Shown: in pieces, positions 13,247-34,313 of the stretch
Position numbering within the stretch: the first letter of the stretch is position 1
How the letters are laid out: each line of letters begins with the position of its first letter
Assembly (NCBI RefSeq): GCF_018603515.1
Contig: NZ_JACATN010000010.1
Location: 1 to 34,725, forward strand
Length of the DNA stretch: 34,725 nucleotides
Reading direction: 5' to 3'
Source: Zobellia barbeyronii
Lineage (GTDB): Bacteria > Bacteroidota > Bacteroidia > Flavobacteriales > Flavobacteriaceae
Notes under the pieces: generated by a model
Seen by the model: the letters and a program-made list of their open reading frames with translations, nothing else
The model's database searches: none
What the model was told of the DNA's origin: nothing
Translations under genes and position numbers: made by a program

Positions 13247-14446
13247 TCAATCTAATTTCATCTGATGCCGAATACCTTTTTCGAGTCCAGTAAGCTGCGC
13301 CATACCTAAAGCCCTACCAATAAGGGAATACCCAGGATAAAAATCTCCCTGACGTTTTTTATCATCTAGCAATACATGACCATGATCGGGTCTTAAAGGA
13401 ATAGCAGCATCAGTCCGGCCAAATCCTTTTCTTCTGAGTTGCTCATTTATAAAAGCTTCCATAACGTCCGCCATTACCACAGAACCGTTTAGATGCTCTG
13501 CTTCATAAAACTTACCCATAGCATTTAACTGTACATTTCTTAAGTGGATAAAATGGATACGGTCCCCGAAATCTTCAATAATTTTGACCAAATCATTATA
13601 AGGCGAAGCGCCCAACGACCCCGAACAAAAAGTAAAACCGTTATTCAAAGAAGGATAACAATCACGAATAAACTTTAAATCTTCATAAGTTGACGTTATT
13701 CTAGTGATACCAAAAACAGAAAAAGGTGGATCATCTGGGTGAATGGCCATGTGAATACCAAGTTTTTCAGCCTCAGGCAATATCGTCTTAAGAAAGTATA
13801 CCAAATTTTCTCTAAGTTCGTCTTTTGAAATTTGACTTACCAACGCCAAATTCTTTCTAAAAACTGACATTTTAATAGGTTCTTTGCTTCCGGGTATACC
13901 TGCTAGAATAGCATTTTCCAGTGCCTGTTTTTCTATGTCAGACAAACTAACAAAATACTTTTTAGCATTTAGTACAACACTCTCTTCATACACCTCAGCG
14001 GCATTGTCTCTTTTCAATATAAAGAGGTCAAAAGCAGCAATAGCAATTGGGTCATAAAGTAAACTAGATGCCCCGTTGGGCAGTTGGTAGTCCAGATTGG
14101 TGCGTGTCCAATCAATAAGTGGCATAAAATTATAGCAAATGATATTAATATTATGCTTTGCTAGGTTTCTCAATGTTTGAATGTAGTTCTCTATATACGC
14201 ATCCCTTTCTGGGAGTCCATATTTAATAGCGTTGTGAATATTAACGCTCTCCACCACGGACCATTCCATTCCATGCTCTTCTATTTCATTTTTTATTCCT
14301 GCAATGGCTTGTTCGGACCACACCTCTCCCGTGGGTATGCTGTGGCAAGCCGTAACAACACCTTGAGCTCCCAACTGCCTAATATCATCTAAGGTCACCC
14401 CAAAATCTGGTCCAAACCAGCGGTAGGTCTTTTTTAAGTACTCCAT
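13247..14446 (-). CDS. uxuA: mannonate dehydratase
   Basis: This cytoplasmic enzyme removes water from D-mannonate to give 2-keto-3-deoxygluconate in hexuronate (glucuronate) breakdown. Family motifs are clear: MEYLKKTYRWFGPDF at the start, 'GVVTACHSIPTGEVW', 'HPDDPPFSVFGITRI', 'FCSGSLGASPYNDL', 'HFIHLRNV' and 'IPLRPDHGHVLLDD'. The His, Cys and Asp residues in these motifs form the metal-binding active site known for UxuA. The length of about 399 residues is normal. I chose the ATG at 14446, one base after the SDR stop codon. The open frame extends ten codons further into that gene. It is the last gene of the susC-led minus-strand run and no terminator is visible behind it. Confidence 0.95.
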   Translation of the reverse strand: MEYLKKTYRWFGPDFGVTLDDIRQLGAQGVVTACHSIPTGEVWSEQAIAGIKNEIEEHGMEWSVVESVNIHNAIKYGLPERDAYIENYIQTLRNLAKHNINIICYNFMPLIDWTRTNLDYQLPNGASSLLYDPIAIAAFDLFILKRDNAAEVYEESVVLNAKKYFVSLSDIEKQALENAILAGIPGSKEPIKMSVFRKNLALVSQISKDELRENLVYFLKTILPEAEKLGIHMAIHPDDPPFSVFGITRITSTYEDLKFIRDCYPSLNNGFTFCSGSLGASPYNDLVKIIEDFGDRIHFIHLRNVQLNAMGKFYEAEHLNGSVVMADVMEAFINEQLRRKGFGRTDAAIPLRPDHGHVLLDDKKRQGDFYPGYSLIGRALGMAQLTGLEKGIRHQMKLD

Positions 14447-14447
14447 A

Positions 14448-15266
14448 TTAAACTCCGGTAAAAGAATTAAAGCCACCGTCTACATCATAGACCGTTCCCG
14501 TAACAAATGAAGATGCTTCACTCAAAAGGTAATGTACCATCCCATTTAGTTCGGATGCATCGCCAAAACGGTTCATAGGGGTTTTTGCCAATATTTTTTT
14601 ACTTCGCTCCGTATGCGAACCATCTTCATTTATTAAAATTTTTCTGTTTTGATTTCCAATAAAAAAGCCAGGAGCTATAGCATTTACTCGAATTTTATCA
14701 CTGAATTTTGTCGCCAGTTCTTCGGCCATCCACTTGGTAAATATATCAATACCTGCTTTTGCCATGGAATAGCCAAGCACCCGAGTTATAGATTGCTTTG
14801 AGGCCATAGAGGAAATATTTATGATGGAACCATACCCCTGCTCCGCCATTAATTGACTTAGAACAATAGTTGGCAGTACACTACCAAAAAGATTAAGGTC
14901 TACTACCTGTTTTGTATCCTTCAAAGAAATATCAAAAACGGTTTGGTCGGGACGCAGTGTTGCGCCTGGCAGATTCCCTCCAGCCAAGTTAATTAGGCCA
15001 TCTATTGCACCATGAGCGTTTTTTATTTGCTCTCGCAAGGAAACCAGCGCCTTCTCTTCCATTACGTCTACTACATACGAGAACGCACTATTCATGGAAA
15101 TTCGGTTTAGTACATTTCTCTTCTCATCTAATTTATCTGCCGATCTGCCAAGGAGTATTACGCTAGCACCATTTTTAACCAAGTATTCAGCAATGGAACC
15201 ACCTAAAACTCCGGTCCCTCCGGATAGGGCAATTGTTTTATCTCTTAAATCAAAAAGGTCGTTCAT
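14448..15266 (-). CDS. SDR oxidoreductase, probable D-mannonate oxidoreductase (fructuronate reductase)
   Basis: The 272-residue short-chain dehydrogenase has the nucleotide-binding motif SGGTGVLGGSIA (residues about 15-26), the NLAGG motif near residue 93, the catalytic Ser in 'INISSMAS' and the Y-x3-K motif in LGYSMAKAGI. 'PGFFIGNQNRKIL' and the C-terminal 'TGTVYDVDGGFNSFTG' are typical of the SDR subgroup annotated as mannonate oxidoreductase. It would reduce D-fructuronate to D-mannonate with NAD(P)H and feed UxuA, whose gene starts 1 base after its stop. It begins 2 bases after the upstream oxidoreductase gene. Substrate assignment rests on the uxuA neighbour and the family resemblance. 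It could act on a related keto-acid. Confidence 0.85.
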   Translation of the reverse strand: MNDLFDLRDKTIALSGGTGVLGGSIAEYLVKNGASVILLGRSADKLDEKRNVLNRISMNSAFSYVVDVMEEKALVSLREQIKNAHGAIDGLINLAGGNLPGATLRPDQTVFDISLKDTKQVVDLNLFGSVLPTIVLSQLMAEQGYGSIINISSMASKQSITRVLGYSMAKAGIDIFTKWMAEELATKFSDKIRVNAIAPGFFIGNQNRKILINEDGSHTERSKKILAKTPMNRFGDASELNGMVHYLLSEASSFVTGTVYDVDGGFNSFTGV

Positions 15267-15268
15267 AT

Positions 15269-16648
15269 CTAGTCTTTCTTGGCCAGTTCATAAGCTTTGG
15301 TAGTCGTATAATATTTACTGATCATATTGGGTACTTCCCAACTGGGTAGTTGACCAGCTTCCAAATACTTTAAATAATTCTCGGTTACCTGACCAAAATG
15401 GGCCTCATGTCCAATTTTAAATGAATCCGGAATATTAATTTTATAATTACCATCTTCCATTTTCTCCTTTGTAGTACCTGGAAATTGAGCTGTGATTTCG
15501 CCTTCGATTGCTGTATTCAATAGTTCTTCAAAGCCATCTTGTTGTTTTGGGCTTATATACAAAGTGGGTTTATAGCCCTCTTTTTCGCCTTGTTTAATAA
15601 TCAAATCACTCTTAGTGCCTCGCATGATACTGTAATGTGTATCACCAGTGCCTTCAGGTGCTTGATAGTTCCATATTACCGATACTTTGGCATGTTTGCC
15701 ATTAATTTTATAGACCATTTCACCATTACAGAACACATTTAATTTATCATCGGTTATATCCTTTTTTAAATAATCAGGATAACCATCAAGGCCCGTAACT
15801 TTCTGAAATTCGTCCGTTGTAAGTATGGTAGGCCAACGCTTGGCCGTTATCATTTCTATATTGTTGGTATCTATAATTTGTTCGGAAAAAGCCTCCCATT
15901 GCACCAAATCTACCAAATGAGTAGTAACATCAACGATGCCTTCGCCTTCCTCATTTACATCAAAAAACCAAGCCGGACGCACTAGAGGCTGGCCAGAGAC
16001 ATACTTAAAAAAGTGATGCACACTTTCTTTACTAATAGCAGGTTCCTCGGGCGTACCATCTACTAATTCCCCAAATACTTCAGGTAACCCGGAGAAAGTT
16101 TTTTGCATTAATGTAGTAGACTCAAAACGCTCGGTCATGATATCATAAATCAACACCCCGTTCTTTTCCGCAACTTCAAAAGCTTGCTGCAATTTTTTAA
16201 ATCCCTCAGGGTTAATCACTAAGGGCTTGTCTGCATAAACATTCAATCCCGCCTTTACCGCCTCAAGCACATAATCAATCTTTTTACTGTTCTTTCCCGC
16301 TACGATCATAACGTTACCAGGCTTATCGGCAATCATTTTTTCCAAGTAATCATCACCCAAATATTTCTCTACCTTCCAAGCTGTAGGAGCTTCTTCCCGA
16401 GAATTATACGAGTTTATCTTATTTAAAAAATCCTGTACTTCTGGACCATCTGGTGCAAAAAGGTAAATGGTGGAATCTACTTGAGGGTACATTTTTTTCT
16501 GAACCAATGCTGCATGAAAATGACCTGGATCTAATGTCATCATTTTCACATTATCAGAAGTCTTTTTATCGACCATTTTATTATCGGTTTTTTTTTCACC
16601 GCACGCTATGCAGAGTAACAAAAGTAAAAATGAAATTGTATTTTTCAT
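15269..16648 (-). CDS. lipoprotein Gfo/Idh/MocA-like oxidoreductase with putative oxidoreductase C-terminal domain
   Basis: The 459-residue protein starts with a lipoprotein signal peptide (lipobox CIAC, C16), so it is anchored outside the cytoplasmic membrane. After a short linker, residues about 35-190 form a Gfo/Idh-type nucleotide-binding region, but the start 'MMTLDPGHFHAALVQ' lacks the usual GxGxxG loop. The conserved EKP motif appears as ADKPLVI (NVYADKPLVIN). The remainder matches the 'putative oxidoreductase C-terminal' family (PF16490 type), with 'FFKYVSGQPLVRPAWFFDVNEEG' style segments and the VTTHLVDLVQWEAF helix that carries the His and Asp typical of the active site. A substrate is not known. 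It lies after an internal terminator hairpin and 2 bases before the SDR gene. Confidence 0.8.
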   Translation of the reverse strand: MKNTISFLLLLLCIACGEKKTDNKMVDKKTSDNVKMMTLDPGHFHAALVQKKMYPQVDSTIYLFAPDGPEVQDFLNKINSYNSREEAPTAWKVEKYLGDDYLEKMIADKPGNVMIVAGKNSKKIDYVLEAVKAGLNVYADKPLVINPEGFKKLQQAFEVAEKNGVLIYDIMTERFESTTLMQKTFSGLPEVFGELVDGTPEEPAISKESVHHFFKYVSGQPLVRPAWFFDVNEEGEGIVDVTTHLVDLVQWEAFSEQIIDTNNIEMITAKRWPTILTTDEFQKVTGLDGYPDYLKKDITDDKLNVFCNGEMVYKINGKHAKVSVIWNYQAPEGTGDTHYSIMRGTKSDLIIKQGEKEGYKPTLYISPKQQDGFEELLNTAIEGEITAQFPGTTKEKMEDGNYKINIPDSFKIGHEAHFGQVTENYLKYLEAGQLPSWEVPNMISKYYTTTKAYELAKKD

Positions 16649-16730
16649 GTATGGGGTGTTAGTCTTCAGCTTTCTCTCATAGTCGGAAAAAGCCCTTCAA
16701 TCTATATTATAAAAGTTTAGAAGCTGTTTA

Positions 16731-16760
16731 AAAAGCCCGTTCATAATGAACAGGCTTTTC
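16731..16760 (-). terminator. hairpin terminator inside the susC-led gene run
   Basis: A 13-bp stem with one mismatch, left arm 16731-16743 and right arm 16747-16759, has a 3-base loop (TAA). On the minus strand it ends in a short T run. It starts 7 bases after the stop codon of the Gfo/Idh gene, so it should reduce expression of the three downstream genes or mark the end of a processed transcript. Confidence 0.7.
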
Positions 16761-16765
16761 TTATT

Positions 16766-18142
16766 TTAATACTTTACAGTGTCCGTCCCGTAAGGTTTTC
16801 TTTGCTCACGACGCAACATGGCGTTTGCTTCATCGTCATTTATGAACACCTCTTTATCGTAATCCCATTCCAGTTTTCTATCAACCTGCATAGCTATATC
16901 ACTGATCAAACAGATAGCACATGCTTTATGACCTTTTTCAATTGGTGAAATAGGTGCTTTTCTTGTCTTGATACAATCTAACCAGTTACCATGTTGGTCG
17001 TCAATTTTTTCAAGGTGAATCTCATTTTCCCCGATAACCGATTCTAAAATTTTAGGATCAGAAGCGTTTAATGCTTTACTGCTCTTTTCTTTATCTACTG
17101 GATCGGTAGCCGAAGCTTGGTAAGAACCACGGGAAACAAAAATCCATCCATCAGTACCTTCATAACGAATACCATTGGTATATCCTCCGCTGGTATAAAC
17201 CGTGATGCCGCTATCATACTCATGCTTCACAAAGAAATCGCCATGTACGTTCCACAATCCAGATTTCGGAAACTCTGCAAGCGCCTCAACGGAAATAGGT
17301 CCTCCTAATTCCGTATTCATACCCCAAGCCGCGGAATCATAGTGATGCTGACCCCACCCGGTAATCATACCAGCGCCATAATTACGAGAACGCAACCAGC
17401 CTGGTCTGCTATAATCTGCTTGAGGGTGCACACCTATTTCTGTATAAGGAACTTCTGGGGTAGAACCCAACCACATATCAAAATTCAGGTTTGATGGTAT
17501 AGGCATTGCAGGAGCTTCGGGTCCGGCAGGGTCACCAGGTAAACCAATTTTTACCGTATGGATTTTACCTATTCGCCCATTTCTCACCAGTTCTGCAGCA
17601 ATCCTAAATTGTGGCATGGCACGTTGTTGTGTCCCTACCTGCAAAATAGCACCTGTTTTCTGAACAACTTCTCGCAATTGTTGTCCTTCTCTTACCGTTA
17701 AGGAAGTAGGTTTTTGAAGATAGATATCCTTTCCGGCCAAAGCAGCCTCCATTGCCGGTTGCGAATGCCAGTGGTCCGGAGTACTTATAACAACTGCATC
17801 TATATCCTTGTTCAAAAGCATTTCCCTATAGTCTTCATATACTTTGGTTCTGTCATACATGGCTTTGCCTGTTTTTTCCTGGTAAAACCCATCCACTAGA
17901 AGCTTAGCGTCTGCAGCTCTTTTAGAATCAAGATCACACACTGCCAAATAATTTGCTTGATCAAAACGAATCGTATCGCGAATATCATGGTCTCTAGCAA
18001 TACGACCACAACCGATCTGACCAATATTTATCTTATTACTGGGCGCATTTTTACCCAAAACATGGGCTGGTACAATACTAGGAAAAGCTACCATAGCGGC
18101 AGTACTTAAAGCTGTTCTGTTTATAAATTTTCTTCTATCCAT
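16766..18142 (-). CDS. Tat-exported Gfo/Idh/MocA-family oxidoreductase
   Basis: The 458-residue protein begins with a twin-arginine signal (MDRRKFINRTALSTAAMVA), so it is exported folded with its NAD(P) already bound. The Rossmann start is INIGQIGCGRIARDHD. The EKP motif of the family is LQKPTSLTV, as in secreted relatives where the Glu is replaced by Gln. A second domain contains 'GWGQHHYDSAAWGMN', whose His and Asp residues are the likely catalytic pair. By family it oxidises or reduces a sugar hydroxyl or keto group. Secreted relatives act on glycosides, forming or reducing 3-keto sugars. It begins 16 bases after the DUF6807 gene and is followed by a terminator. Its exact reaction is not shown by the sequence. 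Confidence 0.87.
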   Translation of the reverse strand: MDRRKFINRTALSTAAMVAFPSIVPAHVLGKNAPSNKINIGQIGCGRIARDHDIRDTIRFDQANYLAVCDLDSKRAADAKLLVDGFYQEKTGKAMYDRTKVYEDYREMLLNKDIDAVVISTPDHWHSQPAMEAALAGKDIYLQKPTSLTVREGQQLREVVQKTGAILQVGTQQRAMPQFRIAAELVRNGRIGKIHTVKIGLPGDPAGPEAPAMPIPSNLNFDMWLGSTPEVPYTEIGVHPQADYSRPGWLRSRNYGAGMITGWGQHHYDSAAWGMNTELGGPISVEALAEFPKSGLWNVHGDFFVKHEYDSGITVYTSGGYTNGIRYEGTDGWIFVSRGSYQASATDPVDKEKSSKALNASDPKILESVIGENEIHLEKIDDQHGNWLDCIKTRKAPISPIEKGHKACAICLISDIAMQVDRKLEWDYDKEVFINDDEANAMLRREQRKPYGTDTVKY

Positions 18143-18158
18143 GTTAGTAATACGTATT

Positions 18159-19415
18159 TTATTTATTGATTAATTCTATTTGGTTTTCCTTTGCAAACGA
18201 TTGCCAGTACGCTTCTGCTTCCTCAGCATTTAAAGCACCATCAAACACAACCATTCTGTAATTCAGTTCATATCTTTTATTCGGTTCTATTTTCCATTCT
18301 TCATGACGGATAGGGCAAAATTCAAAAAACATATCGCCTCTACCTCCATTGGCATCAATAGGCCAAATACGCATAGGTTCCGGATGGTTTCTATTCTTAG
18401 GGTGACTCATGAACAGAATTCCGTTCATGCCTTTTCCATCCGATGCTTCTCCTGATACAATACACCATTTGGCGTTGGTTCCATCTGCAGTTAAACGGTC
18501 ATTACCTTCAGAAGTCAAAACCGAACAATTATCCGCCTTCCAGCGTTCGTTAAAACGAAGTCCCAATCCTCCACCGTAGCGGTACGCTTCAAATAAAATA
18601 CCTTTCTCCAGAGGTGAACTGAATTCACTTGTGTAGTCGAACATATAGCGGTCCGCCCGGTTTAAGTTCCATAGTTTTACTTGAATATCTTCGTTTAAAG
18701 CTACTTGAGGCTCTTCCTTTGTTTTCAGGTCGATGTGCTCTTGAGTTGCAGTAAACGAAGCATAGACATCTCCCGCTTCCGTATTTTTAAATTCCTTAAA
18801 AAGAACCGTTCCCATTCCATCTCCAAGATTCCAAAAATCCACTCGTTCACCATCTACTTGAGTATGGGTCCATGGTCCCCAAAGACCGTAATGATGATAA
18901 TGGTCGTTAGGTTGAATACGGGTAAGGGTATCCCCTTTTGGTGTGATAATAGGGTGAATATATCCTGATTTTTTAAAAATGGAATCTACACCTTCCGGTG
19001 GATAAGTCATTTCATACCGATACGAGACGGCTGGTTTGTTCTGAAAATTAAGTTGTAAACTACCATCTTGTTTTTTTTCTGATAGTCCACTGTCCGATTT
19101 GTATGAGGACACTCCGTTCCTCAATGAATAATTTAAAGGTTCATCACTATTTTTTTCAGTAACCGGAACAAACCAAATTTTATTCTCCTTTTGATTTATC
19201 TGAAAAGAAACTTCTATATTTTTTTTTCCTGCTTCTTGAAAAAGAACCATAGGTTTCTTGATATCTATTTGAGCTTCCTCGGCTTTTTTCAAATCAAAAC
19301 TGACGGGTTGGGTTAAAAAAATTCCGTCACCTTTATCTACCGTAAAGCGTATTGAATTTTCAGAATTACATGACCACAGGATCGAAATAATAAGTAAAAA
19401 AACAATTGCACGCAT
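18159..19415 (-). CDS. DUF6807 (PmoA-like) lipoprotein
   Basis: The 418-residue lipoprotein has a lipobox LWSC (C16). Residues about 120-400 match the DUF6807 family, named 'methane oxygenase PmoA' in older annotation although it is unrelated to methane oxidation. Clear pieces are 'SGYIHPIITPKGDTLTRIQP', 'DHYHHYGLWGPWTHTQVDGERVDFWNLGDG' and 'NRNHPEPMRIWPIDANGGRGDMFFEFCP'. The HYHHYGLW cluster looks like a metal or substrate site. Such genes often sit beside Gfo/Idh oxidoreductases in polysaccharide-use loci, as here. The function is not established. It lies 50 bases after susD and 16 bases before the Tat-exported oxidoreductase, without any terminator between them. Confidence 0.85.
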   Translation of the reverse strand: MRAIVFLLIISILWSCNSENSIRFTVDKGDGIFLTQPVSFDLKKAEEAQIDIKKPMVLFQEAGKKNIEVSFQINQKENKIWFVPVTEKNSDEPLNYSLRNGVSSYKSDSGLSEKKQDGSLQLNFQNKPAVSYRYEMTYPPEGVDSIFKKSGYIHPIITPKGDTLTRIQPNDHYHHYGLWGPWTHTQVDGERVDFWNLGDGMGTVLFKEFKNTEAGDVYASFTATQEHIDLKTKEEPQVALNEDIQVKLWNLNRADRYMFDYTSEFSSPLEKGILFEAYRYGGGLGLRFNERWKADNCSVLTSEGNDRLTADGTNAKWCIVSGEASDGKGMNGILFMSHPKNRNHPEPMRIWPIDANGGRGDMFFEFCPIRHEEWKIEPNKRYELNYRMVVFDGALNAEEAEAYWQSFAKENQIELINK

Positions 19416-19465
19416 AAACTGTATTTTAGATGACGGAATTAAAACAAAAACAAATTAACTAACTA

Positions 19466-21322
19466 TTAATTATCATTCTCTGGTTCAGAAACTGTAGTGA
19501 GCGGAGCAATATTTAGTTCCGCACCAGGATATCCTTCATTTTGATTGATGCGCGCTTGGGTATTAGCATTTATTGCCGATGCAGGTACCGGCCACAAAAC
19601 ATGGTAAGGGCTCATCGTATATTCATCTCCATGAATAGTTTTAACCCCTTTATTATAAAAGTCGGTAACCTCCATAATACGATCGTACCAAAAATTCTTT
19701 TGAGAAAAATTATCCATACTATAAGTTTCACCATTATAAGCTGTTTGTCCGGTCATAGCAAAAATGAATGCTACGCGAGCAAGCTCTGTTTTACGAGGTT
19801 CTTCATAGTATAATTCACGAGCACGCTCATCAAGAATAACATCAATATTTACATCGGACGCCATAACATCATCAGCTTCTGCTCTTCTTCTAACAGCATT
19901 TATATCTTCTGCTGCCAAAGCTAAATTTCCTTTCCAAAAATAAGCTTCGGCACGTAATAAATGTGTTTCAGCAATACGGAAAACGTACCAATCTGAGTGC
20001 CCTCCCTGTGGCTTCACATTTAATGGATCAGGAATAGAAAATTTATAATGTGGAAAATCAAACCAATTACGGATGGTATCAGAACATAAAGGCGTTCCAT
20101 CTGGAAGATACAATTCTAAATTTTTACCGTAAAACGAATTACCAGCCTCTTTTAAACTTGGTGCATTGTACACGAAATCTTCCATTTGAACCCAGTTACC
20201 ATCCTTAAACCTTTGATCATTATTGGCATCTTTCCAGATTTGTTCAGTACTATAAGCTGTACCTCTATTCCTACCTATACCCCTACCATATTCAAAAACC
20301 TGATTGATTTCTGCATCCGGAGCATCTGACATTCCGTTTTGGCCGTCTGGCGTGTTAATAAAACGCCACCATAAGGGTACCGCTTGCCGTTGTATACTAG
20401 TGGGAGCACGTGAACCATTATCTTCGAATTCCAAACGACTAATAGACATTAAAATACCCTCCGTATTACCAGGAATACTCTTATTCTGAGGCCTATGTAA
20501 ATCCCATGTCACATCCTTAGTTGCATCACCAGCGGTAGCACCAAATCTATTGGTCATTAGCCTGTGTTGTCCTCCCTCTATTAATTGTGAAGATGAAGCA
20601 ATAGCCGCATCAAAATCTGTTAATGCCAAATTTACCTTTGTAAGCAAGTGTAAAACTGCACCTTTGCTCACATCTCCTTTGTCTGAAACTTCAGGCACCA
20701 TAGAAACAGCTGCATTCAAATCTTCTTGTATTTTCTCTAAAATGGTAATTCTACTGGTACTCACAAAATCTAACTTTGGTTCTTTAACCTCCTCAAGAAC
20801 AAAAGGAATATCACCAAATTGCTGCGTAAGCCTGTAATAAAAATATCCTCGTAGAAAATAGGCCTTGCCAAGTATTGTAGCACGCTGTTCATCACTATCA
20901 AACTCAGCATCGTCAATTCTACCAACAACGGTATTGGTAAATTTTATTCCTTCGTAGAAAAGATTCCAATACCATCCAATCCTATTAGTGTTTGAACTAT
21001 TTAAATTAGCATCCGGTAGAATTAATAGGTTTAAATCTTGCGCTGGACCAGATTTATCTGTTGTTCCTTCTACCGCCACCTCAGAAAATACGTTTTCTGT
21101 AATAATAGGAGCTCCATCTCCATAGAATTCAGATACTAGTCTGGCTAATGCATTATTATTTAAACTGGCTAGCCCATCGGGAGTGTTCAAGGCATTCCCC
21201 GGAGTAAAAAAAGATTGTGGCTCAGCATCTAAAAATTCTTCCTCGCAAGAAGTAAAGGTCAAGGCAAAAACACAGGTCAAACCCAGTAACGCTTTTCTAT
21301 ATGTATATAATTCTTTATTCAT
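19466..21322 (-). CDS. SusD/RagB-family nutrient-binding outer-membrane lipoprotein
   Basis: The 618-residue protein is the surface-exposed glycan-binding partner of the SusC channel. A lipoprotein signal ends at C26 (TSCEEEFLDAEP), with the acidic triplet after Cys that favours surface display. The SusD N-terminal helix set is visible in 'TPGNALNTPDGLASLNNNALARLV', 'YFLRGYFYYRLTQQFGDIPFV' and the TPR-like helices after it. The C-terminal RagB part includes 'FRIAETHLLRAEAYFWKGNLALAAEDINAVRRRA' and 'DERARELYYEEPRKTELARV', with 'HVLWPVPASAINAN' and 'NQNEGYPG' near the end. The ligand is not evident. It starts 19 bases after the susC stop codon. The longer segments named here are read in pieces from the full protein. 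Confidence 0.95.
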   Translation of the reverse strand: MNKELYTYRKALLGLTCVFALTFTSCEEEFLDAEPQSFFTPGNALNTPDGLASLNNNALARLVSEFYGDGAPIITENVFSEVAVEGTTDKSGPAQDLNLLILPDANLNSSNTNRIGWYWNLFYEGIKFTNTVVGRIDDAEFDSDEQRATILGKAYFLRGYFYYRLTQQFGDIPFVLEEVKEPKLDFVSTSRITILEKIQEDLNAAVSMVPEVSDKGDVSKGAVLHLLTKVNLALTDFDAAIASSSQLIEGGQHRLMTNRFGATAGDATKDVTWDLHRPQNKSIPGNTEGILMSISRLEFEDNGSRAPTSIQRQAVPLWWRFINTPDGQNGMSDAPDAEINQVFEYGRGIGRNRGTAYSTEQIWKDANNDQRFKDGNWVQMEDFVYNAPSLKEAGNSFYGKNLELYLPDGTPLCSDTIRNWFDFPHYKFSIPDPLNVKPQGGHSDWYVFRIAETHLLRAEAYFWKGNLALAAEDINAVRRRAEADDVMASDVNIDVILDERARELYYEEPRKTELARVAFIFAMTGQTAYNGETYSMDNFSQKNFWYDRIMEVTDFYNKGVKTIHGDEYTMSPYHVLWPVPASAINANTQARINQNEGYPGAELNIAPLTTVSEPENDN

Positions 21323-24524: not shown

Positions 24525-24554
24525 CAAAACTATAAAATTTTATGAATTACGCAA
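24525..24554 (-). promoter_or_regulatory. susC promoter (TTG-N19-TAGTTTTG)
   Basis: On the minus strand a TTG at 24552-24554 is followed by exactly 19 bases and then TAGTTTTG (24525-24532), an exact match to the Bacteroidota consensus. Transcription would start near 24519, giving a leader of about 45 bases. Confidence 0.7.
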
Positions 24555-24565
24555 CCGATTGCGTA
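24548..24565. promoter_or_regulatory. 18-base palindromic operator, likely for the adjacent LacI-type regulator
   Basis: TACGCAACCGATTGCGTA is an inverted repeat with one mismatched pair out of nine, centred on CG as in many LacI-family sites. It covers the -33 TTG of the susC promoter, so bound repressor should block polymerase. The regulator gene lies 156 bases away and is divergent. Confidence 0.75.
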
Positions 24566-24679
24566 AATTAATTACACAAAATTTATCAAATTAGCATATA
24601 TACTCATACAAAATGGACTTAAACGCTTAAATAAAGTTATATTTTCTAATAAAATTGAATTAAGTCTTGTATATTTATA

Positions 24680-24720: not shown

Positions 24721-25737
24721 ATGGCAAAGAAAATCACGATTTATGACTTGGCGCAGAAACTAAACATCTCTCCAGCCACCGTCAGTAGAAGTTTAAACGA
24801 CCACCCGGCCATTAGTCAAAAGACTAAGGATAAAGTATTACTGGTCGCTAAAGAAACAGGCTATAGAACCAACAAATTTGCAGCTAATCTTAGTAAGCAA
24901 AAGTCCAATACTATTGGAGTTATTGTTCCTAAACTGAATTCCAACTTTATGTCTACAGTATTATCTGGCATAGAGAAGATTGCTAATGATATTGGATATA
25001 ACTTAATAATTAGCCAGTCCTTGGAGTCAGAAAAAAAAGAAAAGCTCAACGCAAAAACTCTTTTTGATAGTGGGGTTGATGCCTTATTGGTTTCTCTTGC
25101 TTACGAAACTGAAAATTACGATCACTTTACCACCTACACAGACAGGAAAATACCCCTACTTTTCTTCGATAGAGTTTGTGATTTACCAAACTGCCCTACT
25201 ATCACCATAGATAACCATGCTGCAGGTTTTGACGCTACACAACATTTAATTGAACAAGGGTGCAAAAACATTGTGCATATTAGTGGCAACCTGAAACGAT
25301 CCGTTTATTCCGATAGATTTGAGGGATACCAAAGGGCTTTATATAAGAGTGATATACCGTTCAGGAAGGAAAACCTCTATGAGAGCGATCTTAACATAGA
25401 GAATGTTAGGACGTTTGTAGAGCGAATAAAAAACTCAAAACATAAGGTGGATGGCATTTTTGTATCCAACGACACCTTTGCCGTACACTGTATAAAAGAA
25501 TTGAAAAAAGAGGGATACAGGATACCGGAAGACATAAAGATTATAGGATTTAATAATGACCCGGTTTCTGAAGTTATCTCACCAAACTTAACTACCATAG
25601 AATATCCTGGTTATAAAATGGGCATTCTTGCCGGAGAAAGTATTATTAGCCATCTCAGCGGTTCTATTAATATTCAATCTGCGGACCAAATTCTTATAAA
25701 ACATAAATTAATCATTAGAGAATCTACACAACTTTAA
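24721..25737 (+). CDS. LacI-family transcriptional regulator
   Basis: The 338-residue regulator has an N-terminal LacI helix-turn-helix with 'KITIYDLAQKLNISPATVSRSLNDHP' and the hinge helix 'NKFAANLSKQKSNTIGVIVP'. A periplasmic-binding-protein-like sensor domain follows, visible in 'GIEKIANDIGYNLIISQS', 'LFFDRVCDLPNCPTITIDNHAAGFDATQHLIEQG', 'DGIFVSNDTFAVHCIKEL' and 'IIGFNNDPVSEVISPNLTTIEYP'. It binds DNA as a dimer and releases or binds it in response to a sugar or sugar phosphate. It is divergent from susC with a near-perfect palindrome in the shared 247-base region, so it most likely controls the susC-led run and possibly itself. The ThuA gene begins 15 bases after its stop and is probably co-transcribed. 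Confidence 0.94.
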   Translation: MAKKITIYDLAQKLNISPATVSRSLNDHPAISQKTKDKVLLVAKETGYRTNKFAANLSKQKSNTIGVIVPKLNSNFMSTVLSGIEKIANDIGYNLIISQSLESEKKEKLNAKTLFDSGVDALLVSLAYETENYDHFTTYTDRKIPLLFFDRVCDLPNCPTITIDNHAAGFDATQHLIEQGCKNIVHISGNLKRSVYSDRFEGYQRALYKSDIPFRKENLYESDLNIENVRTFVERIKNSKHKVDGIFVSNDTFAVHCIKELKKEGYRIPEDIKIIGFNNDPVSEVISPNLTTIEYPGYKMGILAGESIISHLSGSINIQSADQILIKHKLIIRESTQL

Positions 25738-26667: not shown

Positions 26668-26679
26668 ATTACATTGAAG

Positions 26680-26687
26680 TAGTTTTG
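26680..26687 (+). promoter_or_regulatory. TAnnTTTG -7 box before the DUF6503 lipoprotein gene
   Basis: TAGTTTTG is an exact consensus match 14 bases before the start codon at 26702. It suggests that this gene can be transcribed apart from lacI-thuA. Confidence 0.45.
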
Positions 26688-26701
26688 CTTAAAACAACCA
26701 A

Positions 26702-27514
26702 TTGAAAGCTCTCTACACTTCTATTTTAGTATTATTCTTTTGCTTTTTTACCTCGTGTAAAGAGACAAAATACAAGCCATCCAGCAAAACAGTAGATACA
26801 GCTGCAGCATCTTCAGCAAAGCAAGATAGTAGCAGCTTGTTAGATAAATGTATCAATGCACATGGTGGAATTCAAAAATGGACGTCGTTCACTGGTATCT
26901 CTTATAATTTAGAAGAAAACGGTAAAACAGTTTATCAACTTACTAATATAAAAGACCGTAGGGCCTACTTAAAATCTAACGATTATGAAGTGGGCTTTGA
27001 CGGAAAAGTAGCATGGGCAAAACCAGATGCTTCTAAAATTCCTGGGAAATCCCCTGCTTTTTATTATAACTTAGATTTTTACTTTTTAGGAGTTCCCTTT
27101 TTATTGAAAGACCCAGGAGTAGTCGCTACAGATGAAGGAACATCCGTAATAAACGGTAAAAATTACAAGACTTTAAAAATTACTTTTGGCTCGGAAATAG
27201 GTCTTTCTCCTGAGGATGTATATTACCTCTACTTAAACCCCGAAACTTTTAGGTTGGAGATACTCACCTATTCAGTCTCCTTTTTTAAGAAAGAAAACGC
27301 ACAAATAAATTCTGCCAAAACGTATTCAGAATATAAAGAAGTACAAGGTATTATGATGCCAACAAAACTGGAGAATTTTGAATGGAACGATGGAAAGCTA
27401 GGAAAAAGCACAAACCATATTCGTCTTTTTAGCGATATACAATTTCTAAATGAAATACCGGACAAATCTATTTTTGAGGCTCCAAAAGGTTCTATAACAG
27501 AAAGTATTAACTAG
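26702..27514 (+). CDS. DUF6503-type lipoprotein
   Basis: The 270-residue lipoprotein has lipobox FTSC (C19). A low-complexity Ser/Ala/Thr linker follows, and then the recognisable domain starting 'LLDKCINAHGGIQKWTSFTGISY'. Further conserved pieces are 'FDGKVAWAKPDASKIPGKSPAFYYNLDFYFLGVPFLL', 'DPGVVATDEG' and 'LSPEDVYYLYLNPETFRLEILTYSV'. This matches the DUF6503 family, a flavobacterial group with a lipoprotein-carrier-like (LolA/LolB-style) beta fold. The function is unknown. The start codon is TTG at 26702. No ATG is nearby and the next in-frame Met is far into the protein, so TTG is well supported. Its 3' end converges on the cytochrome-like gene with an 8-base gap and no visible terminator. 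Confidence 0.75.
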   Translation: MKALYTSILVLFFCFFTSCKETKYKPSSKTVDTAAASSAKQDSSSLLDKCINAHGGIQKWTSFTGISYNLEENGKTVYQLTNIKDRRAYLKSNDYEVGFDGKVAWAKPDASKIPGKSPAFYYNLDFYFLGVPFLLKDPGVVATDEGTSVINGKNYKTLKITFGSEIGLSPEDVYYLYLNPETFRLEILTYSVSFFKKENAQINSAKTYSEYKEVQGIMMPTKLENFEWNDGKLGKSTNHIRLFSDIQFLNEIPDKSIFEAPKGSITESIN

Positions 27515-27522
27515 ACTAGAAT

Positions 27523-29754: not shown

Positions 29755-29799
29755 TCTAAACAAAAAATTTATGCTATAATTATATCGTTTAAATATACA

Positions 29800-30432: not shown

Positions 30433-30466
30433 GCAAGTAAACTAACAAGCACATTCAAAAATTTGA

Positions 30467-32416
30467 TTACTCTACAATAAGCTTTATCCTCATTGAAGCT
30501 GAATGCCCTGGAAAGGTACAAACAATCCAGTATTCTCCTGCAAATTTAGGCACTTCAAAATAGATTGTTTCGTCTGTTTCTGGCTGAACAATACCAGTAT
30601 GTACAAGAACCAAATCTGTATCTGGAACATAGTTTAAGTCTGCGCCATCTAATCCTAAATGCAGCGCTAAATCCCCCACCTTAGTTACAGACTCTTCACC
30701 TCTTTCTGTTATGACCAGATTATGAAGCATATCGTCATTATTGCTAAAGGTAATCTCTACTTTAGATTTTCTTTTAAGCTTTAACTCAGTAATATCATAT
30801 TTTAGACCTGGCTTAGTACTAATCACTATTTTTTCATCAGGACCATTTACCCATGTCAACGGCATTTCATTTATCCTTTTAGGTTGTACAAGTCCATCTT
30901 TACCCGTTTTACTTTCAATTTGTTTGGATTTCAAAGTACCACCAGGAACTTCATTTAATGTATAATAACCTGTATCATGCAAAAGTGATTCTCCTTTATT
31001 TGTTTTTAGATCAACTACTTTCAATTGATGTATAAACCCGAGTTTCATACCATCAACTTTTAATCTTACAGCTAGTCCATCATCTGAAACATCCGCATTT
31101 GTTACCACAGCTTTCTGCTGATCAACAATAGGACTTCCGTAGGTATTATGATATAGATAATTAAACGTTGTTATCTGATAACTAGATACATCTGTACCCA
31201 CCTTTTTATTTATGGGCTTCGTAAATTCTAAAAGAAACCCATCATCCTCAGCCTTCATTGTTTTAACTTCAAACGGAACTTTACCGTTCCACTTTAATCT
31301 CTGTAGACCGAACATTTTTTTGCCGGTAGATGACCAACCTCTACTGGTCATACCAACAAACATACTATTATCACTACCCCATAACATTCTGAGAATTCCC
31401 GAAGAAAACCCTTCTACAAAAGGAAAAACAGCTCCTTGGTAAACACCATTCACCTTCTCCATGTACACCCTCATTATCTTACTATGACCTTGATCACCTA
31501 CAAACATTTGACCTTCAAATGGGCCAAATTTACCTTTGGTGGTATCATAAATCATATCAGATGTAGAGATTCCCAAAATTGTATGAGGCAACCAAATTGC
31601 TGGTGCCTTTAATTCGGGTACTTTCTTTGAATATTCATAAAGACTTAAACCAGATTCCTCTTCAATATCTTCTTTCTTTAACTTTAAAGGGGATTTAGGA
31701 TCTCCCGTCCATACTAAACCTTCTGGATTACCAGCAAAATCACCTTTTTCCAAATGTGTAATTCTCCCCGAGCCTACCCAATCTCCCTGATTTTCAGAAT
31801 AAAAAATATCTCCAGCATTATTGATAACGTACCCAGAAGGAGAACGTAGACCAGTAGCAATAGGAGTCATCTCCCCTTCTGGAGTAATTCTTAACATCCA
31901 GCCTCTCCATTTTACTAAACTAGCTCCATGTCCAATCCAAGATAGATTCAAAGTAACTAGCATATCACCATTATCCATGAATTTTGGCCCATAAGAATAG
32001 TCATGATAATTACCTGACAATGGCCATGAATAAATAGTTTTATACAGATCTGCAACGCCATTACTATCTTTGTCATCAAGTCTAGTCAACTCACCCCTTT
32101 GAGATAAATAAAAGCTTTTATCCCTATAGTTTAATCCTAAGGCTTCGTGCATACCACTAGCAAACCTAGTGTAGTCTGGTGAATTACCATAAGGTTTGTC
32201 AATAACCCAAACTTCCCCTCTTCTTGTTGAAACCCCTAACTTATCATCATCTGTTAATGCCAATCCACCAACTTCCAAAACTACATCATCCGGTATAGGA
32301 ACATCTACGATGTCATAGAATTGGGCTTCTTTTTTGGCCATGGCCGATTGTGCCGCACCAAATTGATAGCTCCCGAATAGAACTAAAAAAAATATTGTTT
32401 TATATAAAGTCTGCAT
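30467..32416 (-). CDS. beta-propeller protein with C-terminal azurin-type copper domain
   Basis: The 649-residue protein has a signal peptide (ending FGAAQS). Residues about 30-380 are a soluble beta-propeller, with 'GGLALTDDDKLGVSTRRGEVWVI', 'ARFASGMHEALGLNYRDKSFYLSQRGELTRLDD'-like blades (seen as FASGMHEALGLNY) and 'GLRSPSGYVINNAGDIFYSENQ'. A linker of beta-domains follows. Residues about 520-649 form a cupredoxin whose type I copper ligands are H565 (MLHNLVI), C633, H638 and M642 in CTFPGHSASM, the same C-x4-H-x3-M spacing as azurin. It should be a secreted electron carrier or a copper-linked dehydrogenase. It starts 10 bases after the DUF1080 gene stop. Confidence 0.88.
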   Translation of the reverse strand: MQTLYKTIFFLVLFGSYQFGAAQSAMAKKEAQFYDIVDVPIPDDVVLEVGGLALTDDDKLGVSTRRGEVWVIDKPYGNSPDYTRFASGMHEALGLNYRDKSFYLSQRGELTRLDDKDSNGVADLYKTIYSWPLSGNYHDYSYGPKFMDNGDMLVTLNLSWIGHGASLVKWRGWMLRITPEGEMTPIATGLRSPSGYVINNAGDIFYSENQGDWVGSGRITHLEKGDFAGNPEGLVWTGDPKSPLKLKKEDIEEESGLSLYEYSKKVPELKAPAIWLPHTILGISTSDMIYDTTKGKFGPFEGQMFVGDQGHSKIMRVYMEKVNGVYQGAVFPFVEGFSSGILRMLWGSDNSMFVGMTSRGWSSTGKKMFGLQRLKWNGKVPFEVKTMKAEDDGFLLEFTKPINKKVGTDVSSYQITTFNYLYHNTYGSPIVDQQKAVVTNADVSDDGLAVRLKVDGMKLGFIHQLKVVDLKTNKGESLLHDTGYYTLNEVPGGTLKSKQIESKTGKDGLVQPKRINEMPLTWVNGPDEKIVISTKPGLKYDITELKLKRKSKVEITFSNNDDMLHNLVITERGEESVTKVGDLALHLGLDGADLNYVPDTDLVLVHTGIVQPETDETIYFEVPKFAGEYWIVCTFPGHSASMRIKLIVE

Positions 32417-32426
32417 GTTCTTCTAT

Positions 32427-34313
32427 TTACCAAATGATACTATATTCAACCTTTTGCTCACCCGCTGGAATTTTCACTAACAATTCCTCTTCCCCATTCG
32501 ATACCCGAATTATAGGAGATAAACTATCATCCGAAAAATCAACAAAGTAACTCTCGTCATTAACTATATACGAGCCATCTGGCAGTTTTTCTATTGCTTC
32601 TCCAGAAGCCACCTTGTGCCAAATTTCTCCTTCTCCACTAGCTAATACAGTTCGATTCAATTTACGTTCATCTGAAGATGGCACCATTTTATCTTTAATA
32701 ATTTTAGACTCAATTTTTCTAGTAAATATTGGAATTCCTACTTTGTCGAGCTCATAGCCCTCTGAAAATTGTAAAGCCTCTTGCGATACATTCTTAGGCC
32801 ATTTTGAATCAGCCGATTCCAATATTGTAAATTCCGGGTTTCCATGAAAGGAAACCGCAAAACCAGCTGGTTCTCCTAATTGTCTTATACCTCGTGAATG
32901 CCACATTTGGGTAGCATCTAAAAAATCACCGTTCCAAACTTCCAGTAGACAACCAGAAGCTAAATCATAAGCATAGTTTATTTTTTGTGGTGTCCCTACT
33001 GATATACAATGGGTACGTTTTTCATTTTCATGCATCAAAAAACTACGTTGTGTTACTGCTAGCTCCGTCGGTTCCACCATAATTTTTCTACCTCCAACAC
33101 TTTTCTTTTTCGCTATGGAACTAGCGGCATGAAGTGGTTGTTTTTCAATTCCAGGACCTTCTACGGAGAGGCTAAATCCTATTACCCAAGGATTGTGCTT
33201 GTTATAAATTAATCTAAATGGCACTTCTCCTTTTGATAGAGTAACCTTGCTTACACCCAAAGAATCAACAATAAAGTTCCCGTCCCGATTAACCACGGTG
33301 TCATTATCTATAATTAATAAACCACCTGCCTGATTTAATCTGAAGTCAAAAATATAATCACCAGTAACAGGAACTACTAATTTACCTTGGTAATCCAATA
33401 TCCGTGTAACCTTATCGCCAACGGCCATAGTAGAAGATAAAGAGTCTGTTACAATTTCTCTTATAGGAACTAGACTATCCAAATTCGGCAGCATAACATC
33501 TTCATTCTTAAATTCTTTCATTTTCATATTTGAAAATGAAAGCTTGTTATTCTCATACAATTTATACTTTAAGTTTTTGAATGCAATCGCCCCATGATCT
33601 CCCTGAATCATTAATGGAGCCTTAGCAATTTCATCTTGACCAATACCCCCCCGAGTAGCACCTGTAACTTTAACATTTTCTTGAATCAATGTTCCATTCA
33701 ACCAAACTTCCTTAAATTCAGCATCTTTAATTTTACTACCAGTAGAATCGAACCTTGGAGCATGAAATATAATTCTAAAATGCTGCCATAAACCAGGAGC
33801 TTTTGCTGCATTAATTCTTGGAGCATATCCCTCATAACCTTCATTTCCCTTATCTTTTGTCCTATCCCAACGTTGATAAATACCACCCATATCACCATGT
33901 GATACATCAAGAACCTCCCAACTATCAAAAAGCTGAACCTCATATCTTTCTTGGAAATACAGACCAGAATTAGAACCTTTAGGTATCATAACATCAACCT
34001 CTAACTCTATATCACCGTGTTCAAAATTAGTTGTCAGATTTCCCTTGTCTGTTTCAGTGGGTATGTTTACTAATACACCTTTTCCTTCTGTTGATATAAT
34101 CTTCCCTTCCTTAGAGCGGTCAACATATACTCCGCCAACAGCACTCCAATTATTTGATATTTTTTTGAAATCTTCAAGAGTATTTAGAGATATAGATTCA
34201 AAAGGAAGTGAAATTTCTTGTAGTGAGGATTTAGTTCTTTCTACTTTCCTTTCTTTTTCTGTGCAGCAATACAACAACGCACTTAAAATAAAGATTGGTA
34301 CAATTCTTTTCAT
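32427..34313 (-). CDS. 3-keto-disaccharide hydrolase-type (DUF1080) lipoprotein with PA14-like domain
   Basis: The 628-residue protein has a short signal with a Cys pair at residues 16-17, suggesting a lipoprotein, though the lipobox is unusual. Residues about 45-255 are a DUF1080/3-keto-disaccharide hydrolase domain (concanavalin-like fold): 'FEHGDIELEVDVMIPKGSNSGLYFQERYEVQLFDSW', 'GGIYQRWD', 'PGLWQHFRIIFHAPRF', 'KEVWLNGTLIQENV' and 'PLMIQGDHGAIAFKNLKY'. Residues about 295-385 look like a PA14 carbohydrate-binding domain (VPVTGDYIFDFRL, LLIIDND). The last 200 residues (from about 430, 'INYAYDLASGCLLEVWNGDFLD') are a third domain I cannot name. It heads the second minus-strand run, with a TATTTTTG box about 17 bases upstream. 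Confidence 0.85.
   Translation of the reverse strand: MKRIVPIFILSALLYCCTEKERKVERTKSSLQEISLPFESISLNTLEDFKKISNNWSAVGGVYVDRSKEGKIISTEGKGVLVNIPTETDKGNLTTNFEHGDIELEVDVMIPKGSNSGLYFQERYEVQLFDSWEVLDVSHGDMGGIYQRWDRTKDKGNEGYEGYAPRINAAKAPGLWQHFRIIFHAPRFDSTGSKIKDAEFKEVWLNGTLIQENVKVTGATRGGIGQDEIAKAPLMIQGDHGAIAFKNLKYKLYENNKLSFSNMKMKEFKNEDVMLPNLDSLVPIREIVTDSLSSTMAVGDKVTRILDYQGKLVVPVTGDYIFDFRLNQAGGLLIIDNDTVVNRDGNFIVDSLGVSKVTLSKGEVPFRLIYNKHNPWVIGFSLSVEGPGIEKQPLHAASSIAKKKSVGGRKIMVEPTELAVTQRSFLMHENEKRTHCISVGTPQKINYAYDLASGCLLEVWNGDFLDATQMWHSRGIRQLGEPAGFAVSFHGNPEFTILESADSKWPKNVSQEALQFSEGYELDKVGIPIFTRKIESKIIKDKMVPSSDERKLNRTVLASGEGEIWHKVASGEAIEKLPDGSYIVNDESYFVDFSDDSLSPIIRVSNGEEELLVKIPAGEQKVEYSIIW

What the first reader, a model, noticed from the sequence alone, without database searches (positions are those of the whole stretch)
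13247..34313. SusCD locus without classical glycoside hydrolases: a candidate oxidise-cleave route for uronate-containing glycosides
Sequence shows susC/susD, two exported Gfo/Idh-type oxidoreductases (one Tat, one lipoprotein), DUF6807, ThuA, DUF1080 (3-keto-disaccharide hydrolase family), a heme protein, a copper-domain protein, an SDR, uxuA and a LacI regulator. No GH or PL family is recognisable. Known: ThuA/ThuB and DUF1080 relatives handle 3-keto sugars, and UxuA dehydrates mannonate. Inference: a sugar ring is oxidised first, the weakened glycosidic bond is then cleaved, and a hexuronate derivative goes to UxuA. The combination with heme and azurin electron carriers and a uronate exit is what may be new.
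Basis: partly seen in the sequence, partly recalled or inferred. Interest (0 to 1): 0.75.

Follow-up and report, generated by a model that had tools for sequence, protein, structure and literature searches.

The report
Glucuronate-handling oxidoreductase gene cassette
A marine bacterium carries a movable, separately regulated set of genes that probably uses paired oxidoreductase-type enzymes, instead of ordinary sugar-cutting enzymes, to free glucuronic acid from a complex sugar and feed it into metabolism; the general trick is known, but this enzyme set has not been characterised as far as could be seen.

Summary
The genes are really there (Zobellia-like genome), and none of the 14 proteins matches a GH or PL family in Pfam. 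But the stretch is not one system. Window 13247-27514 is a LacI-controlled cassette: divergent LacI-ThuA-DUF6503 and SusC-SusD-DUF6807-Gfo(Tat)-Gfo(PF16490)-SDR-UxuA. A 20-bp operator at 24547-24566, unique in the genome, recurs in 14 of 14 LacI-bearing cassettes examined. The second run (27523-34313) has no such site. Its DUF1080 + propeller-cupredoxin pair is a unit of its own (72 of 80 loci), found with or without the cassette. The propeller-heme protein is the one part of that run that tracks the cassette. The uronate idea gains support: UxuA in 11 of 17 relatives; UxaC, GH67, GH115 or CE15 beside the Gfo pair in 5 of 20 loci elsewhere in Bacteroidota; DUF6807 and ThuA fused in four. Oxidise-cleave chemistry is already known (BT2157/BT2158, LacABC/DUF1080, ThuAB), so this is a new variant, not a new kind. 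What the Gfo pair, DUF6807 and ThuA do chemically is unproven. Boldest open reading: the cassette removes the 4-O-methyl group of methylglucuronate.

The parts
13247..14476 (-). uxuA, mannonate dehydratase (probably cytosolic)
   Evidence: TIGR00695 464.4 bits, cut-off 199.55
14448..15266 (-). SDR, D-mannonate oxidoreductase type (fructuronate to mannonate)
   Evidence: PRK08277 315.5 bits, cut-off 281
15269..16648 (-). GfoC: lipoprotein of Gfo/Idh fold, PF16490; usual GxGxxG loop replaced by DPGHFH
   Evidence: PF16490 E 4.5e-136; 4oo3 E 3.7e-194; DPGHFH in 32 of 37 homologues scored
16766..18142 (-). GfoTat: Tat-exported Gfo/Idh oxidoreductase, most conserved protein of the cassette (79-96% in the 14 relatives aligned)
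   Evidence: nearest PDB chains are dehydrogenases 8tdf, 8tdh
18159..19415 (-). DUF6807 lipoprotein; predicted fold resembles PL26 and galactose mutarotases
   Evidence: PF14100 E 1.7e-71; AF2 mean pLDDT 81; Foldseek
19466..21322 (-). susD
   Evidence: PF07980
21342..24473 (-). susC
   Evidence: Plug, TonB-dependent barrel
24547..24566 (.). LacI-type operator TTACGCAACCGATTGCGTAA
   Evidence: only exact arm match in the genome; found with up to 4 mismatches in 14 of 14 LacI-cassette intergenic regions of relatives
24721..25737 (+). LacI-family regulator
   Evidence: PF00356, PF13377
25753..26667 (+). ThuA, exported; fused to DUF6807 in four relatives
   Evidence: PF06283; fusions L183, L188, L190 by Pfam, L191 by phmmer
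26702..27514 (+). DUF6503 lipoprotein, optional member (seen in 5 of 17 relatives)
   Evidence: PF20113
27523..29763 (-). DUF7133 propeller + cytochrome c lipoprotein; tracks the cassette more often than its neighbours do
   Evidence: PF23500, PF00034, CASCH at residue 629; TIGR02604
29800..30432 (-). HlyIII-family membrane protein, probably unrelated
   Evidence: PF03006
30467..32416 (-). Neighbouring unit (Cup): PQQ-sugar-dehydrogenase-like propeller fused to a type 1 copper domain
   Evidence: H565, C633, H638, M642 invariant in 20 of 20 aligned
32427..34313 (-). Neighbouring unit: DUF1080 (3keto-disac_hyd) + PA14 lipoprotein
   Evidence: PF06439 E 1.8e-24, PF07691
34645..34725 (-). 5S rRNA, contig end
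   Evidence: Rfam RF00001

Best explanation
Window 13247-27514 is one LacI-controlled catabolic cassette for a glucuronate-bearing glycan fragment. SusCD imports it across the outer membrane. In the periplasm a Gfo/Idh pair (Tat protein plus PF16490 lipoprotein), with DUF6807 and ThuA, oxidises the uronosyl ring, opens a bond on it by elimination or hydrolysis of the keto-sugar, and restores the ring, releasing plain hexuronate. The hexuronate enters the cell (a TRAP transporter lies in the cassette of four relatives), is isomerised by the UxaC encoded elsewhere in the genome, reduced by the SDR to mannonate and dehydrated by UxuA to KDG. The propeller-cytochrome c protein is a frequent companion that probably passes electrons from a sugar oxidation to the respiratory chain. 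The DUF1080-cupredoxin pair next door is a separate sugar-oxidation unit. Shown: gene content, operator, conservation, fusions, uronate neighbours. Inferred: every reaction upstream of UxaC, the order of steps, the bond that is cleaved, and that LacI binds the operator.
For: Operator between the divergent arms, unique in the genome, in 14 of 14 LacI-bearing cassettes. GfoTat beside GfoC in 17 of 17 Flavobacteriaceae loci with GfoC and, at 49-71% identity, directly beside it in 17 of 20 phylum loci read. DUF6807-ThuA fusions in L183, L188, L190, L191. Uronate genes in the 17 Flavobacteriaceae loci: UxuA in 11, SDR in 12, UxaC in L126, TRAP in 4. Among the 20 phylum loci: UxaC in L182 and L185 (L182 by Pfam, with an SDR over the PRK08277 cut-off), GH67 + GH115 + GH10-CE15 in L189, CE15 in L178, CE15 + GH115 in L183. 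UxaC is in the own genome. GfoTat is nearest to dehydrogenases 8tdf and 8tdh. The DUF6807 model matches a PL26 lyase and mutarotases. In L128 a PQQ-type sugar dehydrogenase (PF07995) and a separate small cytochrome c follow GfoC. A TIGR02604-HEAT-cytochrome c protein and a PF14100 protein share a putative operon on a Verrucomicrobia cosmid that let S. meliloti use lactose (PMC5342196).
Against: No activity is shown for any of these proteins. GfoTat is far below the BT_2158 cut-off (130.7 of 750 bits). 8tdi, deposited as glucuronide-3-dehydrogenase, is only a weak match (E 5.9e-6), weaker than the GH109 chain 2ixa (E 4.8e-7), so it says nothing on substrate. GfoC lacks the usual dinucleotide loop, so it may not be a dehydrogenase. 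Of the 17 Flavobacteriaceae loci, 6 lack UxuA, 5 lack SDR and 6 lack SusCD within the 20 kb read. In 15 of 20 phylum loci no UxaC, GH67, GH115 or CE15 was detected. Genome-level co-occurrence with GH67 (17 of 30 GfoC genomes against 48 of 365 others) is no better than with the control GH29 (25 of 30 against 90 of 365), and within GH29 genomes it is not significant, p 0.11. Foldseek TM-scores for DUF6807 are only about 0.5.
Confidence: 0.5

Rival explanations
1. One reading: the whole 21 kb is one pathway, in which cupredoxin and heme proteins oxidise the sugar, DUF1080 cleaves the 3-keto-glycoside and UxuA takes the uronate.
For: All genes lie together in several Zobellia; gaps inside the second run are 10-36 bp. 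In L183 a cupredoxin protein (PF00127) and a propeller related to Cup (34% identity) sit directly downstream of GfoTat-GfoC; L178 has the same order, but its counterpart of the cupredoxin has no Pfam match. The heme protein tracks the cassette.
Against: Among 18 cassette genomes the Cup protein is missing in 6 and lies on another contig or 70 kb away in 4. The DUF1080-Cup pair is followed directly by DUF4268 and ZIP, without the cassette, in L029, L031, L039 and L040, and sits among sulfatases and fucosidases in other genera. No operator within 5 mismatches in 27400-34725.
Confidence: 0.2
2. The bond broken is not glycosidic: the cassette demethylates 4-O-methylglucuronate (oxidation, loss of methanol, hydration, reduction), yielding plain glucuronate for UxaC, SDR and UxuA.
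For: In L183 and L189 the Gfo pair sits beside enzymes that would already free or de-esterify methylglucuronate (GH115, GH67, CE15), so a further glucuronidase would be redundant. That those families act on methylglucuronate is recalled knowledge.
Against: The own genome and G008 have no GH67. L189 shows no ThuA or DUF6807. No C1 gene was among the neighbours scanned, though only part was scanned. The same genes would also suit plain glucuronate, and the GH67 association is not specific.
Confidence: 0.17
3. Ordinary: GfoTat is an NAD-dependent glycosidase like GH109, and the rest is routine uronate catabolism.
For: GH109 shares the Gfo/Idh fold; 2ixa is found at E 4.8e-7.
Against: Dehydrogenases 8tdf and 8tdh score far better (E 1.5e-19, 8.7e-18), and the C-terminal domain matches PF19051. 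It does not explain GfoC, DUF6807 and ThuA.
Confidence: 0.13

Closest known systems
Bacteroides thetaiotaomicron BT2157/BT2158 type 3-keto glycoside pathway
   Same: Exported Gfo/Idh dehydrogenase and DUF1080 family; GfoTat is a distant relative of the BT_2158 family. BT2158 is called a periplasmic glycoside 3-dehydrogenase (PMC11300592, passages read) and BT2157, a DUF1080 protein, a 3-ketotrehalose hydrolase (PMC9007349, passages read)
   Different: GfoTat far below the BT_2158 cut-off; partners are PF16490, DUF6807 and ThuA; uronate exit; DUF1080 outside the regulated unit. The main paper on this pathway was not held; its full gene range is recalled
Caulobacter LacABC plus DUF1080
   Same: Periplasmic lactose 3-oxidation with a DUF1080 protein proposed to cleave the product (PMC9007349, passages read); a model for the neighbouring DUF1080-Cup pair
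   Different: There a LacABC dehydrogenase, here a PQQ-dehydrogenase-like propeller fused to a copper domain
ThuAB operons
   Same: ThuA with an oxidoreductase, proposed 3-keto-maltose route in Paenibacillus (PMC4765114, passages read)
   Different: Here ThuA is exported, linked to DUF6807 (fusions) and a Gfo pair, with uronate genes
P2B11 glucuronide-3-dehydrogenase, PDB 8tdi
   Same: Gfo/Idh fold, deposited under a name for glucuronide 3-oxidation
   Different: Only E 5.9e-6 to GfoTat, weaker than many other Gfo/Idh chains; its context was not examined
Verrucomicrobia cosmid Lac161 ORF7-ORF10
   Same: TIGR02604-HEAT-cytochrome c protein and a PF14100 protein in one putative operon (PMC5342196, passages read)
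   Different: No Gfo pair in the passages seen; lactose, not uronate

Membership tests
Polysaccharide utilisation locus (SusCD) | Adjacent susC and susD | tested here: met
Polysaccharide utilisation locus (SusCD) | At least one GH or PL | tested here: not met
   no GH or PL at E 0.001 in Pfam for 14 proteins; dbCAN not available
Hexuronate (UxuAB) catabolism | UxuA above curated cut-off | tested here: met
   464.4 against 199.55 bits
Hexuronate (UxuAB) catabolism | Mannonate oxidoreductase above cut-off | tested here: met
   315.5 against 281 bits
Hexuronate (UxuAB) catabolism | UxaC available | tested here: met
   one copy elsewhere in the genome; in the cassette surroundings of L126
BT2157/BT2158 type 3-keto pathway | BT_2158-family dehydrogenase above cut-off | tested here: not met
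   130.7 against 750 bits
BT2157/BT2158 type 3-keto pathway | DUF1080 in the same regulated unit | tested here: not met
   adjacent unit without the operator; transcription itself not tested
BT2157/BT2158 type 3-keto pathway | Keto-sugar intermediates | not testable with these tools
   needs enzymology
PQQ-dependent sugar dehydrogenase (Cup protein) | Propeller fold of the family | tested here: met
   2ism, 3a9g, 6jt5, 3das among the six best Foldseek hits; model mean pLDDT 74.7; many nitrous oxide reductases (propeller plus copper domain) follow at similar E-values but low TM-scores, 0.17-0.30
PQQ-dependent sugar dehydrogenase (Cup protein) | PF07995 profile match | tested here: not met
   none at E 0.001; hhalign probability 2.8% with shallow profiles
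PQQ-dependent sugar dehydrogenase (Cup protein) | PQQ supply | tested here: inconclusive
   pqqC not found, but no control genome gave a match either
GH109 | Closest to GH109 among solved structures | tested here: not met
   2ixa E 4.8e-7 against 8tdf E 1.5e-19
Polysaccharide lyase or mutarotase fold (DUF6807) | Fold match | tested here: inconclusive
   PL26 E 1.2e-7, TM about 0.5; no PDB sequence match up to E 1

The most novel reading that the evidence does not exclude
GfoTat-GfoC with DUF6807 and ThuA form a bacterial demethylating pathway for 4-O-methyl-D-glucuronate: the ring is oxidised, methanol is lost by beta-elimination (DUF6807 having a lyase-like fold), water is added and the ketone reduced, giving glucuronate for UxaC, SDR and UxuA. 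GfoC, with its altered dinucleotide loop, would be a non-redox member of the Gfo/Idh fold.
Probability: 0.17. Interest if true: 0.85.

Novelty: new variant of a known kind. Interest (0 to 1): 0.58.

Why it matters
If true, a widespread cassette (GfoC in 30 of 395 Bacteroidota genomes sampled) gives four poorly understood families (PF16490, DUF6807, ThuA, DUF7133-cytochrome c) a common setting in uronate use, and shows how a locus with no recognisable GH or PL could still use a complex glycan. If the demethylation branch is right, it would say how bacteria deal with methylglucuronate, a side group of xylan; two searches of the held papers listed no paper describing such a pathway (none, three papers on other subjects, listing only), which is weak evidence, since most subscription journals are missing.

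Tried and rejected
Hypothesis that the whole stretch is one unit: rejected on operator and synteny. Hypothesis that genome-wide co-occurrence with GH67 points to a methylglucuronate substrate: rejected, because the GH29 control was at least as strong. Catalytic His/Arg of PQQ dehydrogenases in the Cup propeller: the motifs look alike (labels recalled), but the more distant L178 and L183 homologues have Ala in place of that His and hhalign gave only 2.8% probability, so catalysis is not claimed. Apparent 1900-2025 aa cytochrome proteins in G039 and L121: in L121 an artefact of 5000 masked bases; G039 was not checked. Apparent loss of GfoTat in L122: an artefact of my ORF picker; tblastn finds it at 88%. 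GH109: not favoured. PQQ synthesis: uninformative control. Literature on expression of this locus in Zobellia: nothing in the listings. The nearest lead, a mannonate dehydratase and a Gfo/Idh protein annotated GH109 in a Maribacter on arabinogalactan (PMC11036162, passages), could not be tied to this cassette. Other papers seen only in passages and not used: PMC10971088, PMC10291797, PMC5306329.


Full report
Where it is. The window is a whole 34,725-base contig of a 4.98 Mb genome. For the cupredoxin protein its four nearest named relatives are Zobellia (86-93% identity). The contig ends inside a 5S rRNA gene.

What is there. Missed were DUF6503 (26702-27514) and an HlyIII-family protein (29800-30432). 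Export signals as I read them from the sequence: Tat for GfoTat; lipoprotein boxes for GfoC, DUF6807, the cytochrome protein, DUF1080 and DUF6503; ordinary signal sequences for ThuA and the cupredoxin protein. SDR shows no signal sequence; the annotated UxuA start is a GTG with 14 residues before the family domain, and UxuA is taken to be cytosolic. Pfam gave no GH or PL for the 14 proteins.

Two units, not one. In 80 loci found with the cupredoxin protein (the best 80 of 226 relatives), a DUF1080-like protein lies directly upstream in 72; the eight others are seven Runella loci and one Emticicia. What follows downstream differs. In L029, L031, L039 and L040 (Maribacter) the pair is followed at once by DUF4268 and ZIP, the genes that flank the far side of the cassette in the window; in L016 and L018 a short cassette without SusCD, SDR and UxuA stands between Cup and DUF4268; in L021 and L023 a cassette with UxuA follows; in L025 only HlyIII and the heme protein lie between. 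In other genera the pair often sits among sulfatases, fucosidases and esterases (gene order, one example of each family scanned). 5S rRNA was found beside the pair in L015 and L016, 2 of 10 loci scanned, and in the window.

The cassette in relatives. DUF6807 was sought in 149 genomes, own included; regions of 18 other genomes were fetched and 17 hold GfoC (the 18th, L130, has a 40% DUF6807 only). With the own genome that makes 18 cassette genomes. Usual order: ThuA and LacI on one strand; SusC, SusD, DUF6807, GfoTat, GfoC, SDR, UxuA on the other. Counts in the 17, within about 20 kb each: GfoTat 17 (16 by ORF, one more by tblastn), DUF6807 15, a ThuA-family gene 16 (15 of the window type plus L129), LacI 14, SDR 12, UxuA 11, SusCD 11, TRAP transporter 4 (Pfam in L123, the other three by clustering). 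L127, L128 and L129 carry the core in other surroundings. L124 and L128 add a sulfatase. In L128, whose genome has no match to the heme protein at E 1e-60, a PQQ-type sugar dehydrogenase (PF07995) and a 132-aa cytochrome c with a CVQCH heme motif follow GfoC: the propeller and heme parts as separate genes. Two Zobellia (G002, G006) have lost SusCD and all but about 30 residues of DUF6807.

Which neighbours follow the cassette. From, in the 18 cassette genomes: the heme protein (E up to 1e-60) is within 25 kb in 13 (in G039 and G087 as partial matches), on another contig or 70 kb away in 3 (G005, G008, G013), and unmatched in 2 (G027, G068). The cupredoxin protein (E up to 1e-100) is within 30 kb in 8, on another contig or 70 kb away in 4 (G005, G008, G018, G057) and missing in 6 (G013, G027, G039, G068, G082, G087). 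Outside Zobellia (9 genomes) the heme protein is linked in 6 and the cupredoxin protein in 1. In G005 and G008 the heme protein stays with the cupredoxin gene instead, so it belongs to neither exclusively. Several of these genomes are drafts, so 'another contig' need not mean far away.

Regulation. Between susC and lacI lies TTACGCAACCGATTGCGTAA, a near-perfect palindrome with central CG, as expected for LacI-family operators (recalled). It has no other match with up to 3 mismatches in the window (expected 0.00), and its arms have no other exact match in the genome. The same site with up to 4 mismatches lies in the LacI-cassette gap of 14 of 14 relatives with LacI, while 0 or 1 of 200 shuffles (single-base shuffles) of each region gave a hit. 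Eight of the 14 are Zobellia, so they are not independent; six (L122-L126, L129) are other genera. None lies in 27400-34725 with up to 5 mismatches (one strand; the pattern is nearly its own complement). Binding was not tested.

Uronate link beyond the family. GfoC is in 30 of 395 Bacteroidota genomes (E up to 1e-60). I read 20 of the 27 matching genomes outside the family. GfoTat at 49-71% identity lies directly beside GfoC in 17 of 20; L186, L193 and L194 have only distant Gfo/Idh genes (24-29%) near it. DUF6807 is in 13 and ThuA in 11 of 20, counting fusions. Uronate or xylan side-chain genes are in 5 of 20: UxaC in L182 and L185 (same family; L185 by phmmer only), with an SDR over the mannonate-oxidoreductase cut-off in L182; GH67, GH115 and a GH10-CE15 protein in L189; CE15 in L178; CE15 and GH115 in L183. 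I sought these families with seeds taken from the loci themselves and scanned only part of the neighbours with Pfam, so 5 is a lower bound. DUF6807 and ThuA are fused in L183, L188, L190 and L191 (L190 and L191 are one genus). A propeller-heme protein (DUF7133, HEAT, cytochrome c) lies near the core in L187. A genome-wide association with GH67 exists (17 of 30 against 48 of 365), but the control GH29 is as strong (25 of 30 against 90 of 365), so it reflects polysaccharide degraders in general. Physical closeness is somewhat better evidence: GH67 lies within about 15 kb of GfoC in G180, G370 and G426, 3 of the 17 genomes with both, two of them one genus; for GH29 the list of places was cut, so there is no full control for this.

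The proteins. GfoTat keeps the Rossmann glycine motif (26 of 33 homologues by a strict pattern) and is closest to dehydrogenases 8tdf and 8tdh; a chain deposited as glucuronide-3-dehydrogenase (8tdi) follows at E 5.9e-6, behind GH109 2ixa (4.8e-7) and many others, so it does not indicate the substrate. GfoC (PDB 4oo3, deposited as hypothetical protein) has DPGHFH where the dinucleotide loop should be, in 32 of 37 homologues, which suggests it is not an ordinary dehydrogenase; this is inference. DUF6807 is predicted with mean pLDDT 81 and matches PL26 exo-rhamnogalacturonan lyase and galactose mutarotases, TM about 0.5 at best. The cupredoxin protein (mean pLDDT 74.7) has a propeller like PQQ sugar dehydrogenases plus an auracyanin-like domain with the four expected type 1 copper ligands invariant in 20 sequences (ligand identities recalled); nitrous oxide reductases, also propeller plus copper domain, appear in the same list with low TM-scores.

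How it probably works, and what is known. Conversion of glycosides by oxidation at C3 and cleavage of the weakened bond is established or proposed for BT2158 (PMC11300592, passages), LacABC with DUF1080 (PMC9007349, passages), ThuAB (PMC4765114, passages) and O- and C-glycoside eliminases (PMC10628242, passages). A DUF1080 role in degrading xanthan, which contains glucuronate, was proposed for Thermogutta (PMC5673643, passages). A protein with the architecture of our heme protein was purified and reported to hydrolyse lactose, encoded in a putative operon with a PF14100 protein (PMC5342196, passages). So the principle is not new. New here, as far as the searches show, are the defined, separately regulated cassette, the Gfo pair with DUF6807 and ThuA, and its recurrent uronate setting. 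Which bond is broken stays open: glycosidic, or the methyl ether of 4-O-methylglucuronate.

Verdict. Observation confirmed with corrections; interpretation partly supported; a new variant of a known kind of pathway.

Noticed in passing
19466-24473 and L115-L120: SusC in six Zobellia cassettes falls into two alleles (90-93% or 65-67% identical to the window); the nearest relative by the cupredoxin protein (G004, 93%) has the distant allele, while the enzymes stay 78-98% identical. The uptake pair seems to be swapped over the same enzymes.
   Followed up: partly
L131, L132 (G002, G006): Two Zobellia have lost SusCD and most of DUF6807, leaving a stub of about 30 residues, but keep LacI, ThuA and the Gfo pair.
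   Followed up: partly
34645-34725: The DUF1080-cupredoxin pair lies next to 5S rRNA here and in L015 and L016; many other contigs break at about the same distance from it.
   Followed up: partly
30467-34313: DUF1080 plus propeller-cupredoxin is a tightly kept two-gene unit (72 of 80 loci) and looks like a self-contained sugar oxidation and cleavage pair with its own copper electron exit.
   Followed up: partly
L128:13617-15136: A PQQ-type glucose/sorbosone dehydrogenase (PF07995) and a small separate cytochrome c follow GfoC in a genome without a close relative of the fused heme protein; possible functional replacement.
   Followed up: partly
G000:C22:507161-508342: A second UxuA in the same genome, beside an SDR and a SusD (L136).
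   Followed up: partly
G000, whole genome: 17 matches to the DUF1080 family in one genome, one of them under the cut-off and two in one reading frame.
   Followed up: no
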